Shown piece after piece: positions 36,833 to 46,435 of a DNA stretch of 64,000 bases. The stretch covers positions 1-64,000 of the forward strand of contig JAKIVS010000010.1 in the NCBI GenBank assembly GCA_022750435.1, written 5' to 3'. This DNA comes from Thermoplasmata archaeon. GTDB taxonomy: Archaea > Thermoplasmatota > Thermoplasmata > Lutacidiplasmatales > UBA184. The notes beneath the pieces were generated by a model. The model had not been told where the DNA came from. It saw nothing but the letters and a program-made list of their open reading frames with translations, and searched no databases. How positions within the stretch are numbered: the first letter of the stretch is position 1; each line of letters starts with the position of its first letter. The translations under genes were made by a program, and so were the position numbers.

Positions 36833-37408
36833 TCAGGGCTCGGCGGCGCGGGCGGGGGCTCCCGGGTCCCGTTGGCCCGACGGCGCGTCGCCCCGTTGCA
36901 TCCGGGCGAGCGTGACGCTCGCCGCCTCTTCGTCGGCCGCGGCTTCCGCCCAATCGGTCCAGAGTTTCGGAATCGACCTCAGGTTGGCCAGGAACGCGAT
37001 GACGAGCAGGATTCCAAGGAGGACCGTGGCGAAGACGAAGTGGAGGAGGACGACCATCGCCTGGAGGTCCGTCACCACTACGAGGCCGCCCAGGAACGCC
37101 TGGGCCAGCACCAACACCGCCGCCGAAACGGCGAGGCCGCGGAGCACCGGTCGTCGGCGCTCCGAGACGAGCCCGATCAGCGCCATCCCGGCGACGAGGA
37201 GACCCGTGACGAACGCGCTGACACGGTGGCTCCACTCGATGGCCGTCGCGCCGGAGAAGGGAGGCGCGAACGTCCCGTGGCAGCTCGGCCAATCCGGACA
37301 GGCGAGTCCGGCGTTGCTCGCGATGACATTCCCGCCGAGGACGATCGTCACGTAGGTGGCGAAGAACGCGGCGATGGCGAGGAGCCGGAAGATCGTGTGC
37401 TTCTCCAC
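36833..37408 (-). CDS. ctaA: Heme A synthase, short archaeal CtaA/COX15 type
   Basis: A 191-residue protein, about half the length of bacterial CtaA, with four membrane helices. This matches the half-size archaeal heme A synthases. It keeps the cysteine pair in the first loop (GLACPDWPSCHG, C37 and C43) and heme-ligand histidine candidates H61 (EWSHRVSAFVTG) and H123 (LLHFVFA). The C-terminal 45 residues are hydrophilic and Ala/Glu-rich. It oxidises heme O to heme A. Located 9 bp after the subunit I gene and before ctaB. Confidence 0.88.
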   Translation of the reverse strand: MEKHTIFRLLAIAAFFATYVTIVLGGNVIASNAGLACPDWPSCHGTFAPPFSGATAIEWSHRVSAFVTGLLVAGMALIGLVSERRRPVLRGLAVSAAVLVLAQAFLGGLVVVTDLQAMVVLLHFVFATVLLGILLVIAFLANLRSIPKLWTDWAEAAADEEAASVTLARMQRGDAPSGQRDPGAPARAAEP

Positions 37409-37417
37409 GGACCTCTC

Positions 37418-39112
37418 CTAGGCGGTGACCGGGGACGACTCCGACGTCGCCGCCGCGACCGGCAGGCCGCGGGAGGACGGGAGCGGGGCGGGCTTGGGGC
37501 CGGTCATCTGCGTGGGTGCGGGCTCGCCCCACGGGTCGTCGCTCGTCACGCGGCGGCCGGCGAAGTAGCTGTAGATCATGTTGAAGGCGAACACCAGTTG
37601 GCCGAGCCCGAGGATGAGCGCGCCGACGCTCGAGACGAAGTTCCAGAACTGGAAATTCTCCGTCGGGAGGTAGGTATAGACCCGGCGGGGCAGCCCCTCC
37701 GCTCCGAGGATGAACATCGGGAACAGCAGCATGTTCACGCCGATGTAGGTCAGGAGGAAGTGGACGTGGCCGAGGGATTGGGAGTACCAGCGCTTGGTCC
37801 AGATCGGGTAGTAGAAGTAGATCCCGGCGAAGATCCCCATCAACGTCCCGCCCAGGAGGATGTAGTGGAAGTGGGCCACGACGAAGTACGTCCCGTGGTA
37901 CAGGTAGTCGATCGGGATCGAGGCGAGCAGGAGGCCCGAGAGGCCGCCGATGACGAAGCCGGTGATGAACGCCACGCAGAACCACATCGGGACCGCCATC
38001 CAGATCTGGCCGCCCCAGAGCGTCGCGACCCAGTTGAACGTCTTCACCGCCGACGGGACGGCGATCGCCATCGTCGAGAGCATGAACACGAACCGGAGGT
38101 CCGTGGAAATGCCGGTGACGAACATGTGGTGTTCCCAGACGGCAAACGAGAGGACCGCGAAGACGCCGAGCGAGACGGCCATCGCCCCGTAACCGAAGAT
38201 GTCCTTTCTCGCCAGTTTCGGGAGGACGGTCGAGATGATCCCGAACGCCGGTAACACCATCACGTAGACTTCGGGGTGCGCGAAGAACCAGAACATGTTC
38301 TGGTAGAGCAGCGCTCCACCGAGGGGAGTCCCGTTCGCGGCCGCCAGGATGTGCGTGCCGAAGTTCCGGTCCGACAGGACCATCGTGAGCGCGATCGAGA
38401 GGGACGGCAGCGCGAAGATCAGCAGGACCGAGTTGACCAGCGTCGCCCAGACGAAGAGGGGCAGGTTCCAGTAGTGGACCCCGGGCGCGCGGTGCTTGAC
38501 GATCGTGACGAGGAAGTTGATCGCGCCGAGCATGGAGGAGGCGGAGAGGATGTGGAGCCCGAGGATCCACAGGTCGACGCCGTGCGGGTTCGGTCCGTAC
38601 GCCTGGAGGGAGAGCGGGACGTAGCCGGTCCACCCGGCGTACGCGTTCGAGAGGATCAGGATGACGCCGGCGGGGGGAATCATCCAGAACGCGATTGCGT
38701 TGATCCGGGGGAGGGCCATCTCCTTCGCCCCGATCATCGACGGGACGAGGTAGTTGCCGAACCCCGCGAGGACGGGCATGATGAACATGAAGATCATCAG
38801 CACGCCGTGCATCGTGAACAGCGTCGAGTAGACGTCCGGCGTGATGCCGAGCGTCGTCTGGGGGTCGAGCCCTAGGCCCTGGACGAACCCGAGGTCCGTG
38901 CGGATCAGGACGGCGTAGATCCCCCCGATGAAGAAGAAGATCAGGCCCGTCGTGATGTACATCAGACCAATGCGCTTGTGGTCGGTGGTGAACAGGTAGA
39001 GCTTCGCCTTCCGGACGAACCAGTCGCCGTGGTAGCGGAGGACGAAGAGACCGAACCCGGCGAGCGCGAGAATGATCGCGAGTTCGGCGATGGGTCCTGC
39101 GAGGTCGTACAT
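37418..39112 (-). CDS. coxA: Heme-copper oxidase subunit I
   Basis: Catalytic subunit of the terminal oxidase (564 aa, about 12 helices). Heme ligands are H102 (TMHGVLM) and H416; CuB ligands are H279 (AHPEVY with cross-linked Tyr283), H328 and H329 (EHHMFVTG). H414/H416 lie in VVAHFHY. The HPEVY glutamate and Lys356 (SAVKTFN) suggest an A-type enzyme with a K-channel. The usual D-channel Asp in the GA(R/P)D motif is Glu131 here ([10 protein letters not shown]). No subunit III domain is fused, and none is found nearby. Subunit II lies 7 kb away on the other strand. Confidence 0.96.
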
Positions 39113-39526: not shown

Positions 39527-39785
39527 AGAGCCGCACCTCCCGGTGAGGGACGCCGCGGAGCCGGTCGACCCGGTAGAGGATCCCGGTGAGGAGGAGCATG
39601 GCGATGGAGGCGACGAACGCGCCGCCCACGAACGCCGGCACGTCGAGGAGCCAGTTGCCGGTCGCGAACAGTTGGGTGAGCCCATAGACGACGAACGCGG
39701 CGGCGACGGTGCCGATCAGCAGGAGGATGGCCAGGACCCCCCAGAGCCAGCCGGTCCGGTACTCCGTCTTGGTCGGGTCAGTCAT
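39519..39785 (-). CDS. Small membrane protein of the respiratory operon (88 aa)
   Basis: Two hydrophobic helices (WLWGVLAILLLIGTVAAAFVVYG and VGGAFVASIAMLLLTGILYRV) separated by a short loop, with a basic C-terminal tail. The ATG at 39785 (MTDPTKTEYR) overlaps the end of cytochrome b by 8 bp. No family recognised. Probably a small structural subunit of the cytochrome b/oxidase assembly. Confidence 0.65.
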   Translation of the reverse strand: MTDPTKTEYRTGWLWGVLAILLLIGTVAAAFVVYGLTQLFATGNWLLDVPAFVGGAFVASIAMLLLTGILYRVDRLRGVPHREVRLFE

Positions 39786-41124
39786 GCGCTCGCGCCTCCG
39801 CAACGGCGGGCATCGAGGTGCCCGTAGGGTAGGCGCCCGGCCGCTGGGCCCCCATTCCGCTCTGCGCGGCGAGGCGGGCGCGGTAGCTCTTCTGATAGCG
39901 CCAGTAGAACAGACCGACGAACAGCGCGTTGAACGCGAACAGCGGGCCGAGCCGCTCCGCGACGAGCATCGGGGAGATCGACACGCCCGGCGTCAGGCCG
40001 CCCCAGACCGTCATCAGGACGAACATCTCGAGCAGCGAGCTCCCGATGAACAGGAACACGGGCCGGTCCCGCGGGTGAGTGCGCTTCGAGCGGTCGAGGA
40101 ACGGCAGGAACAGCACGTACAGGATGATCACCGTCGTCACGCCGACCGCGATCACCGGCGTGACCCCCTCGAAATCGACGAGCTTGAACACCCAGAGGAA
40201 GTACCAATCCGGTTCGGTGACCACCCCCGCGGCGCTCAGGTCCCCCGCGTAGGTCGGAAGGGTCCATGGCCAGAGGGCGGCGAGGCCGAGCAGGAGCCCG
40301 ATGTAGAGCAGGGCCCACTTGGTGATGTAGAAGAGAATGTGGGGCATGAACGGAACGTGCTTCTTGTCCTCCTCCTCAGTGAACCGCCGGCGCTGGAGCG
40401 GGTCGGAGGTCGCCGGCGGAGCGATACCGTGCGACTCGAACAGCGCGATGTGGGCGTAGAGCAGCGCGCCGAGCGCGAGCGGCAGCAGAAGGACGTGCGC
40501 CGCAAACATCCGCGATAACAGACCTTGTCCGGTTCCGTCGGAGAGGATCAGGGGACCGAGGAGCGGCCCGGCGTAGGGGAGTCGGATCGCCAGGACGAGG
40601 CCGACGTTGGTCGCGTTGAGGGAGATCTGCGTGTACGGGAGGAGGTAGCCCGTGAACCCCATGCCGAGGGTCACAAGCATGAGGAGCGAGCCGACCATCC
40701 AGGAGAATTCCCGGGGGGCTTTGTAGACGCCGAGGTAGTAGCCCCGGTAGAAGTGGACGAACGCGAGGAAGATCATCGCGTACGCGCCGTAGAGATGGGT
40801 GGACAGCAGCAGCTGACCCATCGGTACGGAATGGATGATGTAGTACGTGCTGCACCACGCGGCCGGCGACGAGGACAGCGTCCCGGCGGCCTGGCCGCAC
40901 GCCGTGTAGGTCGGGTTGACGCTCGGCTGGTAGTACAGCAGCAGCAGCAGGCCGGAGATCACCTGGTAGAGGAACGCGTTGACGACGAACGCGCCGGTCC
41001 AGTACGACGGCTTGAACGTGAACTCCGGTTGCGGTCGGAGCGCCCACTTGGGCATCCCGGTCCGGTCTTCGACGAACCCCCAGACCTGGTTCAAGGTCCG
41101 GTTGAACCAACGCTCGAACCCCAC
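39778..41124 (-). CDS. Cytochrome b (bc/b6f-type), fused two-domain
   Basis: Quinol-oxidising cytochrome b, 448 residues. Two bis-His heme pairs are visible: H110 and H124 in the second helix region (LLLSTHLYGAYAM, AFVHFYRGYY) and H210 and H225 in the fourth (RMFAAHVLLLP, YAHIALFESHG). The 14 residues between H210 and H225 match the b6-type spacing. The Qo motif is PDWY (EPDWYFLW, P304), a variant of PEWY. The C-terminal domain (subunit IV equivalent) is in the same chain. Follows the Rieske gene by 13 bp. Confidence 0.94.
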   Translation of the reverse strand: MGFERWFNRTLNQVWGFVEDRTGMPKWALRPQPEFTFKPSYWTGAFVVNAFLYQVISGLLLLLYYQPSVNPTYTACGQAAGTLSSSPAAWCSTYYIIHSVPMGQLLLSTHLYGAYAMIFLAFVHFYRGYYLGVYKAPREFSWMVGSLLMLVTLGMGFTGYLLPYTQISLNATNVGLVLAIRLPYAGPLLGPLILSDGTGQGLLSRMFAAHVLLLPLALGALLYAHIALFESHGIAPPATSDPLQRRRFTEEEDKKHVPFMPHILFYITKWALLYIGLLLGLAALWPWTLPTYAGDLSAAGVVTEPDWYFLWVFKLVDFEGVTPVIAVGVTTVIILYVLFLPFLDRSKRTHPRDRPVFLFIGSSLLEMFVLMTVWGGLTPGVSISPMLVAERLGPLFAFNALFVGLFYWRYQKSYRARLAAQSGMGAQRPGAYPTGTSMPAVAEARAHD

Positions 41125-41137
41125 CTCGTCCCCTCCC

Positions 41138-41950
41138 TTACACGATGTTGCAGAGGCGGATCGGCGTCTGTTGCGAGAGCTGGCTCGAGTTCCCGACCGG
41201 GTAGTCGCCGCTTAGCGTGTCGAGGTGGCCGTTGACCGGCGGCCCGACTTCGTTGACCGCGTAGATCGTGTCGTCGGTCTGGTCCCACTCCAGGATCACC
41301 TGGGGAAGCGGCAGGACGGCGGGGCCCGTCAGGTTCGAGGCCCCATTCGTGACGTCGTAGGTCGACCCGTGGCAGGAGCAGTGGATGTAGAACGCCTTCC
41401 CGCCGGGAGTCTGCGGGCAGGTTCCCGCCGGGTAGTACGAGATTGCGGGCGCGGGGCAGCCGAGGTGCTGGCAGATCGCGCTGAACGCGACGATCGACTT
41501 CTGGGTCCCGATCCCGTTCAGGACGTTGGTCGCCCCGCTCCCGGACGAGGCACCCGAAGCGGGGGCGACGTTGATCAGGAAGTTGGGTTCGTTACGGAGG
41601 GGGTAGTTGAACGTCAGCACCGCGTTCGTGTCGGCGTTGTACTCCTTCTCGACCTTGGTGACGGTCAGCGGGGTGCCGTCAAGATCGAGGAGCTGGACGC
41701 GGGCGTAGCCGGTCGCCCCGATCATGGGAGGCTGGGCGTACTGCAGCGAACCTCCGACGAGGCCGCCCCCGGCCGCGCCAACCACACCGGCGGCGACGAG
41801 CAGCTTCAGCACGTTGCGTTTCGTCTCGTCGACCTCGCCCGTGGCGACCGGGTTCGCCGGGGCAAGCCGTCGGAGCTGGCCGACCGGAAAGTCGAGCGCC
41901 GCGGCGGGGGCTGCGACGAACGGACACGTGGAGGGGCAGTCGAGCTCCAT
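41138..41950 (-). CDS. Rieske iron-sulfur protein
   Basis: High-potential [2Fe-2S] protein that takes electrons from quinol at cytochrome b. Cluster motifs CQHLGC (C160, H162, disulfide C165) and CSCHG (C191, disulfide C193, H194) are 25 residues apart with a long insertion and an extra Cys178, as in archaeal SoxL/SoxF-like proteins. Export signal: DETKRNVLKLLVAAGVVGAA (about 41–60), a Tat-like signal with Lys-Arg instead of Arg-Arg, preceded by an odd 40-residue N-terminus with CPSTC. Lies directly below the Tat genes; its start overlaps the upstream stop (TGATG). Confidence 0.94.
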   Translation of the reverse strand: MELDCPSTCPFVAAPAAALDFPVGQLRRLAPANPVATGEVDETKRNVLKLLVAAGVVGAAGGGLVGGSLQYAQPPMIGATGYARVQLLDLDGTPLTVTKVEKEYNADTNAVLTFNYPLRNEPNFLINVAPASGASSGSGATNVLNGIGTQKSIVAFSAICQHLGCPAPAISYYPAGTCPQTPGGKAFYIHCSCHGSTYDVTNGASNLTGPAVLPLPQVILEWDQTDDTIYAVNEVGPPVNGHLDTLSGDYPVGNSSQLSQQTPIRLCNIV

Positions 41951-44880: not shown

Positions 44881-45567
44881 CTACGGCGCCTTCGGAGGTT
44901 GGGTCGGCGCGGGGGTCGGCTCGGGGTATCCGAGACGCTCCGGGGGCATCTCCTCGGCGGCCCCGCGACGCTTTCCCACGACGAATCCCAGGACGAGCGC
45001 GAGGATGACGAGCCCGACGATCGTCCCGGAGATGATGTAGACCGGGGCGCCCGGACCGTTCGCGGTCGAGAGGCTTCCCGGCGCCTCACCCGAGCCGAGG
45101 AGTCCCGACATCGAGGGGAAGTGGCCCGGCTCGGTGCAGACGTACTCGTAGACCCCGACGGCCGGGGCCGTGAAGTTCGCGTAGAACTTCGCGCCCGTCG
45201 TCGCGCCGACCTGGATGTTGACGATCGGCGCGTGGGAGGAGAAGTACGCGGTGAGGTCGCTCGCCGTGTCCGTGGTCGGGAAGGTGTAGCCCGCGGTCGG
45301 CGAGAGGGTGAAGGTGTGCGGGATCGTCCCGAGCTGAGTGACCGTGACGTGCACGGAGTCGCCGGGCTGGACCTCGCCGATGTTCGTCGTGAAGGCGAGC
45401 TGGTCGGAGACGCTCACGTTCAGGAAATCGACGCCGCTCGCCGCCGTGCGAACGCCGGAAGCCGGGAGGGCCGAGTGGGTCGGCGCGACGCTCGGCACGA
45501 GGGCGATCCCGAGGACGGCGGCAACGATCAGTAGCGCGGCGGCGGCACGTGCGTACGGCCTAGGCAT
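44881..45567 (-). CDS. Membrane-anchored blue copper protein (cupredoxin)
   Basis: A 228-residue secreted electron carrier. Signal peptide ALLIVAAVLGIALVPSVAPT, then a cupredoxin domain with type-1 copper ligands His84 (GTIPHTFTL), Cys144, His149 and Met153 (YVCTEPGHFPSMSG), a membrane helix (about 177–199, VYIISGTIVGLVILALVLGFV), and a Pro-rich cytoplasmic tail. The track ORF continues upstream over the divergent region; the ATG at 45567 places the signal peptide correctly. Divergent from oxidase subunit II, so a role in passing electrons from the bc complex to CuA is likely (inference). Confidence 0.9.
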   Translation of the reverse strand: MPRPYARAAAALLIVAAVLGIALVPSVAPTHSALPASGVRTAASGVDFLNVSVSDQLAFTTNIGEVQPGDSVHVTVTQLGTIPHTFTLSPTAGYTFPTTDTASDLTAYFSSHAPIVNIQVGATTGAKFYANFTAPAVGVYEYVCTEPGHFPSMSGLLGSGEAPGSLSTANGPGAPVYIISGTIVGLVILALVLGFVVGKRRGAAEEMPPERLGYPEPTPAPTQPPKAP

Positions 45568-45711
45568 CGTGGAAACCCGGCGCGCGGAACGCGCGCTCGG
45601 GCGGCGGGACGGAGAGGCCGCTTCAAAGGGGTTTGGTACGAACCTCGGTGGAACCAGGGCCTGGGGATCCGCCCCCCGAAGCCCGGACGATCGGGGTTCC
45701 GGTACGTACGC

Positions 45712-45975
45712 GTGAAATATCAAGCGACGGACCTCCTTGCCGTCGTGCGCCCGAGGGCCCTCGCTCGCGCGCTCCTCGGGTGGGGCGCCGTCGCTGCATT
45801 CGCCGGCTCGACGGGGTTCGCCGCGGCGAACCCCACGAACCTCCAGGAGACAACCCCGTTGCTCTGGGTGATGATGGCGATCTCGGTCGCCGGGGCGATC
45901 GTCACCTACGCCTTCCTCGCCTACGCGATCTGGCGCTACCGCGACCCGCATACGAAGGGGCGGCGCTATGGATAG
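45712..45975 (+). CDS. Oxidase subunit II, N-terminal part (first helix)
   Basis: An 87-residue protein with a possible signal or helix (LLGWGAVAAFAGSTGFAAAN) and a strong helix LLWVMMAISVAGAIVTYAFLAYAIWRYRDPHTKGRR. In ordinary subunit II the first helix ends in a similar Y-x-x-x-R-x-R segment, which then leads into the second helix. Here the ORF stops and the second helix plus CuA domain are encoded by the next, overlapping ORF. Start GTG at 45712. The pair looks like a subunit II split by an 8-bp overlap. Confidence 0.7.
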   Translation: MKYQATDLLAVVRPRALARALLGWGAVAAFAGSTGFAAANPTNLQETTPLLWVMMAISVAGAIVTYAFLAYAIWRYRDPHTKGRRYG

Positions 45976-46435
45976 CACGCGTCGGATGGAATACGCCTGG
46001 ACGCTCGCCGTCGTGGCGCTCCTCGCCGGCGTGCTGTTCTACTCGACGATCCTGCTCTACGACGACACCGACGCCACGCCCTCCCACGTCGACGAATACA
46101 TCGACGTGATCGGCCACCAATGGTTCTGGGAGTTCTGCTACACCAACGACACGTGTGCCAACGCCACCTACAATCCCAGCAACAACACCGCAACGGGCGG
46201 GGCGATGTGGGTGCGTCCGGGCACCGAGGTCCAGATCAACGTCACCAGCGACGACGTGATCCATTCCTTCAACGTCCCGAGCCTCGGCGTCCGGCTCGAT
46301 GCGATCCCCGGCCGCGTCAACACGATCGCGTTCGCGGTCCCGGCGGCCCCGGTCGGGACGAGCTATCTGATCCAGTGCACCGAATTCTGCGGGACCTACC
46401 ACGGCATCATGCGGGCCTTCGTGGTCGTCACGTAG
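45968..46435 (+). CDS. coxB: Oxidase subunit II, CuA domain part
   Basis: A 155-residue protein: MEYAWTLAVVALLAGVLFYSTILLY is the second helix of a normal subunit II, followed by GHQWFWEF (aromatic electron-entry region) and a cupredoxin fold with CuA ligands His99 (DDVIHSFNVP), Cys137, Glu139, Cys141, His145 and Met148 (QCTEFCGTYHGIM). It receives electrons for subunit I. It lacks the first helix, which is encoded by the preceding ORF (+1 frame relation, overlapping ATGGATAG). Its 3' end overlaps the giant protein gene by 8 bp. Confidence 0.93.
   Translation: MDSTRRMEYAWTLAVVALLAGVLFYSTILLYDDTDATPSHVDEYIDVIGHQWFWEFCYTNDTCANATYNPSNNTATGGAMWVRPGTEVQINVTSDDVIHSFNVPSLGVRLDAIPGRVNTIAFAVPAAPVGTSYLIQCTEFCGTYHGIMRAFVVVT

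What the first reader, a model, noticed from the sequence alone, without database searches (positions are those of the whole stretch)
45712..46435. Oxidase subunit II split into two overlapping genes
Subunit II normally has two helices and a CuA domain in one chain. Here helix 1 is in an 87-aa ORF that ends in the loop after the first helix. Helix 2 and the CuA domain are in a separate ORF whose ATG overlaps the first stop (ATGGATAG, different frame). The overlap looks like translational coupling, so it may be a genuine split. Subunit II is also on the opposite strand from subunit I.
Basis: partly seen in the sequence, partly recalled or inferred. Interest (0 to 1): 0.6.

Follow-up and report, generated by a model that had tools for sequence, protein, structure and literature searches.

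The report
Oxidase subunit II made in two pieces
In a large group of soil archaea the copper-carrying subunit of the oxygen-consuming respiratory enzyme is encoded as two overlapping genes, one for its first membrane helix and one for the rest; this is a real, long-conserved split and not a sequencing error.

Summary
ORF2 (45968-46435, +) encodes transmembrane helix 2 plus an intact CuA domain. The ORF directly upstream encodes a signal-like segment plus helix 1. The overlap is 8 nt (ATGGATAG).

The window comes from a Lutacidiplasmatales MAG (Thermoplasmata). The same split, with the same 8-nt overlap, occurs in all 68 distinct loci compared. Three of these have ACG in place of ATG. Sister genera are split at the same loop with 4-nt overlaps or short gaps, in all three frame relations. 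That rules out an assembly indel and argues strongly against programmed frameshifting.

The likely start is GTG 45745, giving a 76-aa protein from a probably leaderless mRNA.

Joining ORF1 to ORF2 raises the CoxB score from 115.6 to 142.1 bits; shuffled ORF1s reach 119-127. Subunit I is A-type. Lying on the strand opposite to the rest of the cluster is the conserved arrangement, not an anomaly.

The closest known case is subunit IIa of B-type (ba3) oxidases, whose helix is inverted and reported as unrelated in sequence. Here the helix is homologous, predicted to keep the canonical orientation, and belongs to an A-type enzyme. I found no published description of it.

The parts
45700..45724 (+). 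Conserved promoter: CGGTACGTACGCGTGAAATATCAAG, with TATA-like AATATCAA at 45716-45723
   Evidence: Consensus GGTTCGTACGCGGGGAATATGTAGC aligned in 68 loci, usually 28-32 nt before the GTG start
   Evidence: Start inferred from promoter spacing; purifying selection; TIGR02866 CoxB hit in 40 of 46 relatives, positions 7-41 in the window protein; AF2 model with helices 4-25 and 32-64
45954..45963 (+). SD-like tract (GAAGGGGCGG) inside ORF1, ahead of the ORF2 ATG
   Evidence: Mean pairing energy to a generic archaeal anti-SD is -7.6 kcal/mol before the ATG against -4.0 elsewhere in ORF1, over 68 loci
45968..45975 (+). 8-nt stop/start overlap ATGGATAG (phase 1)
   Evidence: 8 nt in all 68 distinct loci; three have ACG in place of ATG
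45968..46435 (+). coxB2 (ORF2): transmembrane helix 2 plus CuA domain, 155 aa, all six CuA ligand residues present
   Evidence: Pfam COX2 1.8e-20; AF2 pLDDT 91; Foldseek best hit Paracoccus CoxB, 1.5e-12; invariant H99, C137, E139, C141, H145, M148
44881..45570 (-). Divergently transcribed cupredoxin, candidate electron donor
   Evidence: Weak plastocyanin/azurin hit, 9.7e-4; conserved neighbour
37418..39112 (-). coxA, subunit I, A-type
   Evidence: TIGR02891 592 bits; best PDB hits aa3 oxidases, 4.5e-126, against ba3 at about 1e-14
39778..41124 (-). Cytochrome b of complex III
   Evidence: Pfam; conserved synteny
41138..41950 (-). Rieske protein
   Evidence: Pfam; conserved synteny

Best explanation
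This is a genuine, ancient fission of the subunit II gene (coxB) of an A-type haem-copper oxidase, cut in the cytoplasmic loop between transmembrane helices 1 and 2. One transcript from its own promoter is probably leaderless and starts translation at GTG 45745. The first protein carries helix 1, periplasm to cytoplasm. Ribosomes ending at TAG 45975 re-initiate at the overlapping ATG 45968, helped by an internal SD-like tract, and make helix 2 plus the CuA domain, giving roughly equal amounts of both chains. The two chains then assemble side by side on subunit I and together do the job of an ordinary two-helix subunit II: CuA takes electrons, probably from the neighbouring cupredoxin, and passes them to haem a. 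Shown here: the split, its conservation, the selection on ORF1, homology to CoxB, the CuA ligands, and the synteny. Inferred: two separate polypeptides, coupling, co-assembly, and the electron donor.
For: Same split in 68 distinct loci, always 8 nt and phase 1. Sister genera are split at the same loop with ATGA or GTGA overlaps or short gaps, so all three frame relations occur. ORF1 is under purifying selection. Joined ORF1+ORF2 gives one continuous CoxB match (model 7-191) at 142.1 bits against 115.6 for ORF2 alone; six shuffled ORF1s give 119-127. CuA ligands invariant in 46 relatives. CuA fold and a single helix in a high-confidence model. Positive-inside tail (FRDPxxRGRRYG) and a cut on the cytoplasmic side fit the topology. 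Whole neighbourhood conserved. Short overlaps in archaea are enriched for subunits of one complex, 45% against 6% in Haloferax (PMC10666635).
Against: No proteomics or transcript data. Three relatives, from at least two lineages, have ACG instead of ATG for ORF2, although each has a strong SD and an otherwise intact gene. Helix 1 alone gives only weak profile hits (17.6 bits) and no significant PDB match, and Pfam's COX2 transmembrane model was not among its listed matches.
Confidence: 0.88

Rival explanations
1. Programmed +1 frameshifting at the stop codon (TAT GGN TRA) joins the two ORFs into one ordinary two-helix subunit II.
For: The frame relation is always +1 and the overlap always 8 nt in the main clade. 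Three genomes lack the ATG (ACG) yet keep both ORFs.
Against: Close genera with the same split have other frame relations, including same-frame ORFs separated by a stop and phase-2 overlaps. The stop codon and the following base vary (TAA, TAG or TGA). Shifting a Gly tRNA by +1 on GGT gives poor re-pairing. The SD-like tract sits at initiation spacing. A fixed 8-nt overlap is expected anyway, because phase-1 overlaps cannot shrink below 8 nt (PMC10666635).
Confidence: 0.05
2. Assembly or sequencing error: a one-base indel breaks an ordinary coxB.
For: A frame change inside one gene is the usual signature of an indel, and the window is a MAG.
Against: The same junction is found in 68 distinct loci from many independent projects.
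Confidence: 0.01
3. ORF1 is only a leader ORF that sets up translation of a self-sufficient single-helix subunit II; its peptide has no role in the enzyme.
For: Single-helix subunit II proteins exist in B-type oxidases. Expression of subunits I and II alone gave an active Geobacillus ba3 oxidase, so IIa may be dispensable there (discussed in PMC3128077).
Against: Selection acts on ORF1's amino acids, with invariant G, D, P and G and near-invariant W, Y and R residues in and after the helix. In two relatives ORF1 shrinks to 48 aa, losing only the signal-like part and keeping the helix. It matches helix 1 of CoxB.
Confidence: 0.06

Closest known systems
Subunit IIa of B-type (ba3) oxidases, e.g. 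Thermus and Aquifex IIa
   Same: A separate small one-helix protein, encoded next to a one-helix CuA subunit II, fills the place of helix 1 (PMC3128077, PMC3141039).
   Different: IIa belongs to B-type enzymes, its helix is inverted relative to aa3 oxidases (PMC3141039), and preliminary analysis found no sequence similarity to the transmembrane segments of A- and B-type oxidases (PMC3128077). Here the enzyme is A-type, the helix matches CoxB helix 1, and the predicted orientation is canonical.
Split mitochondrial COX2 (chlorophycean algae, apicomplexans and dinoflagellates, scoliid wasps)
   Same: Fission of cox2 into two complementary genes.
   Different: In wasps cox2a keeps both helices and cox2b carries the CuA half (PMC5374615). 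There the cut is in the intermembrane-space domain, not between helices 1 and 2, and involves an insertion.
Canonical A-type CoxB/CtaC
   Same: Same helices, same loop length, same CuA ligands; the joined chain matches TIGR02866 continuously.
   Different: One gene there, two overlapping genes here.
Split cytochrome b (b6 plus subunit IV)
   Same: A multi-helix respiratory subunit encoded in two pieces that work together (analogy drawn in PMC3128077).
   Different: Different protein and complex.

Membership tests
A-type haem-copper oxidase subunit II (CoxB) | CuA domain with six ligand residues | tested here: met
   H99, C137, E139, C141, H145, M148 invariant in 46 relatives; COX2 1.8e-20
A-type haem-copper oxidase subunit II (CoxB) | Two transmembrane helices before the CuA domain in one chain | tested here: not met
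   The helices are on two ORFs in different frames
A-type haem-copper oxidase subunit II (CoxB) | Helix 1 homologous to CoxB helix 1 | tested here: met
   Joined chain 142.1 bits against 115.6; shuffles 119-127; 40 of 46 relatives hit CoxB with ORF1 alone; individual hits are weak
A-type haem-copper oxidase subunit II (CoxB) | Partner subunit I of A-type | tested here: met
   TIGR02891 592 bits; aa3 chains 4.5e-126 against ba3 about 1e-14; published as A1 for the order (PMC9287336)
Subunit IIa of B-type oxidases | Partner subunit I of B-type | tested here: not met
   CoxA is far closer to A-type
Subunit IIa of B-type oxidases | Helix inverted relative to aa3 helix 1 | tested here: inconclusive
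   Basic C-terminal tail FRDPxxRGRRYG and the signal-like N-terminus predict canonical, not inverted, orientation; no experiment
Subunit IIa of B-type oxidases | Separate one-helix protein beside a one-helix subunit II | tested here: met
Translationally coupled (termination-reinitiation) gene pair | Stop/start overlap or very short distance (-8 to +10 nt) | tested here: met
   -8 nt in 68 loci; 4-nt overlaps or short gaps in sister genera
Translationally coupled (termination-reinitiation) gene pair | Downstream translation depends on upstream translation | not testable with these tools
   Needs reporter experiments

The most novel reading that the evidence does not exclude
A-type oxidases in Thermoplasmata have split subunit II between helices 1 and 2 at least twice independently (Lutacidiplasmatales and a second, distant clade of the class), and helix 1 has become a free small subunit. 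This would be a natural model of how B-type oxidases came to have subunit IIa, and perhaps an adaptation of membrane assembly in acidic habitats.
Probability: 0.35. Interest if true: 0.6.

Novelty: new variant of a known kind. Interest (0 to 1): 0.45.

Why it matters
Whether subunit IIa of B-type oxidases arose by gene fission or the two-helix subunit II by fusion has been stated as open (PMC3128077). This is a clear case of fission at exactly that point in an A-type enzyme, with recognisable homology, many relatives and fused outgroups in the same class, so direction and consequences can be tested. [quoted passage not shown]

Tried and rejected
Assembly indel: rejected (68 loci). Programmed frameshift: tested through frame relation, stop codon context and sister genera; unlikely but not excluded for the 8-nt clade. 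Leader-peptide role: argued against by selection on ORF1. Pfam alone did not identify ORF1; its best hits were generic membrane DUFs and LapA_dom, and the COX2 transmembrane model was not among those listed. A PDB profile search with ORF1 found nothing significant. A literature search for ACG start codons in archaea gave nothing useful. The first CoxB tree included out-of-frame prefixes, so it was rebuilt on helix 2 plus the CuA domain; two origins remain the best reading (the label needs 2 changes in the bootstrap trees), but starred branches do not force it. Literature searches found no description of a split between the helices of an A-type subunit II; most subscription papers are not held. 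The wider archaea (Sulfolobales SoxH, Nitrososphaeria) could not be checked here.

Full report
What is there. The window lies in a 1.9 Mb MAG. Its close relatives include 'Candidatus Lutacidiplasma silvani' and many unnamed Thermoplasmata MAGs. At 45968-46435 (+) an ORF of 155 aa has one helix and a CuA domain (Pfam COX2 1.8e-20). Directly upstream, in another frame, an ORF ends at 45975 so that the two share ATGGATAG. The upstream ORF has a signal-like hydrophobic segment, a transmembrane helix and the basic tail WRYRDPHTKGRRYG.

Start of ORF1. Aligning upstream DNA of 68 distinct loci shows a strongly conserved element GGTTCGTACGCGGGGAATATGTAGC, usually followed 28-32 nt later by GTG in the ORF1 frame. 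This is the layout of an archaeal TATA box ahead of a leaderless mRNA (general knowledge). In the window the TATA-like octamer is 45716-45723 and the GTG is 45745. A few relatives have no GTG at that spacing and may use a later ATG or another start. In L062 and L063 ORF1 is only 48 aa: the signal-like part is gone and the helix remains.

The split is real and old. In every relative of this clade where both parts could be read, ORF2 is closed upstream by a stop and helix 1 is in another ORF. In 68 distinct loci the overlap is 8 nt; 65 have ATG and three have ACG. The last 47 codons of ORF1 carry no insertion or deletion, and pN is below pS in 2200 of 2278 pairs; alternative frames of the same DNA do not show this. 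Within the same family, genera g25 and g29 share the 8-nt overlap, g27 has 4-nt overlaps (ATGA, or GTGA in one), g28 has GTGA or short gaps, and g26 has a short gap with both ORFs in one frame. Genus g24 of the same family has a different, fused subunit II that falls with other families in the tree. More distant members of the class (f19 in part, f31) also have a one-helix CuA protein preceded by an ORF ending in a hydrophobic helix and a short charged tail, while f11, f25 and f26 are fused. A tree of helix 2 plus CuA puts the Lutacidiplasmatales-type split proteins in one supported clade (99/97) and the f19/f31 split proteins in another (100/98). The bootstrap trees need two changes of the label, although one origin is not formally excluded.

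What the pieces are. ORF2 has all six CuA ligand residues, invariant in 46 relatives, and a confident model (pLDDT 91) whose best structural matches are subunit II of Paracoccus and Rhodobacter aa3 oxidases. ORF1 alone is a weak match to CoxB model positions 7-41, but 40 of 46 relatives hit that same family, against 7 for the next family. ORF1+ORF2 joined gives one continuous match over model positions 7-191 at 142.1 bits, against 115.6 for ORF2 alone. Six joined controls with shuffled ORF1 reach 119-127 bits. The residues between the two matched parts equal the ten missing model positions, so the loop length of a normal subunit II is intact. Subunit I (37418-39112) is A-type by sequence, and the order's oxidases are published as A1 (PMC9287336).

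How it probably works. The cut lies in the cytoplasmic loop, so each piece keeps its proper topology. The positive tail of ORF1 stays inside, and helix 2 starts inside and leads the CuA domain outside. ORF2's ATG overlaps ORF1's stop and has an SD-like tract before it (mean -7.6 kcal/mol against -4.0 elsewhere in ORF1). Pairs at -8 to +10 nt are held to be predictive of termination-reinitiation, are enriched in subunits of one complex in Haloferax (45% against 6%), and a phase-1 overlap cannot shrink below 8 nt (PMC10666635; coupling shown for 14 pairs in PMC6728339). That explains why the 8-nt overlap stays fixed without invoking recoding. The three ACG genomes keep a strong SD (about -10 kcal/mol) and intact ORFs; initiation at ACG is the likely reading but is unproven.

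Strand. In nearly all relatives with enough sequence, coxB lies on the strand opposite to cupredoxin, the PhoU-like gene, TatA, TatC, Rieske and cytochrome b, in the same order as in the window; in a few (L046, L053, L078, L091) the best cupredoxin match lies on the other side of coxB. The opposite strand is therefore the normal arrangement of this locus.

Compared with what is known. Subunit IIa of B-type oxidases is the closest functional parallel, but it is inverted (PMC3141039), reported as unrelated in sequence to the transmembrane segments of A- and B-type oxidases (PMC3128077), and belongs to another oxidase type. The wasp mitochondrial COX2 split is cut after both helices (PMC5374615). 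I found no report of a split between helices 1 and 2 of an A-type subunit II; the library holds open-licence papers only.

Limits. Everything rests on MAG sequences and computation. Two chains, coupling, assembly and orientation are inferred. The extent of the split outside this class was not tested.

Noticed in passing
L058, L079, L084 (coxB2 start): ATG of the downstream ORF is replaced by ACG (TACGGTTA) in three genomes of at least two lineages, with both ORFs otherwise intact and a strong SD-like tract upstream; possible natural use of an ACG start.
   Followed up: partly
window 36833-37408 (-): CtaA-like protein of only 191 aa, matching just the second half of a haem A synthase model: a half-size (compact) version.
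   Followed up: no
window 37418-39112 (-): CoxA has [11 protein letters not shown] where aligned aa3 enzymes have GAPDVAFPRLN: the D-channel entry Asp appears to be Glu.
   Followed up: no
window 46428-46435: coxB2 and the large repeat-rich gene on the - strand end tail to tail with an 8-nt overlap of their 3' ends.
   Followed up: no
L159, L160, L161, L162, L166: A second, distant clade of Thermoplasmata has a one-helix CuA protein preceded by an overlapping or adjacent ORF with two hydrophobic segments, a probably independent split.
   Followed up: partly
L127-L130 (genus g24, same family): One genus of the family carries a different, fused subunit II with an extra N-terminal helix, grouping with other families; suggests replacement by transfer.
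   Followed up: partly
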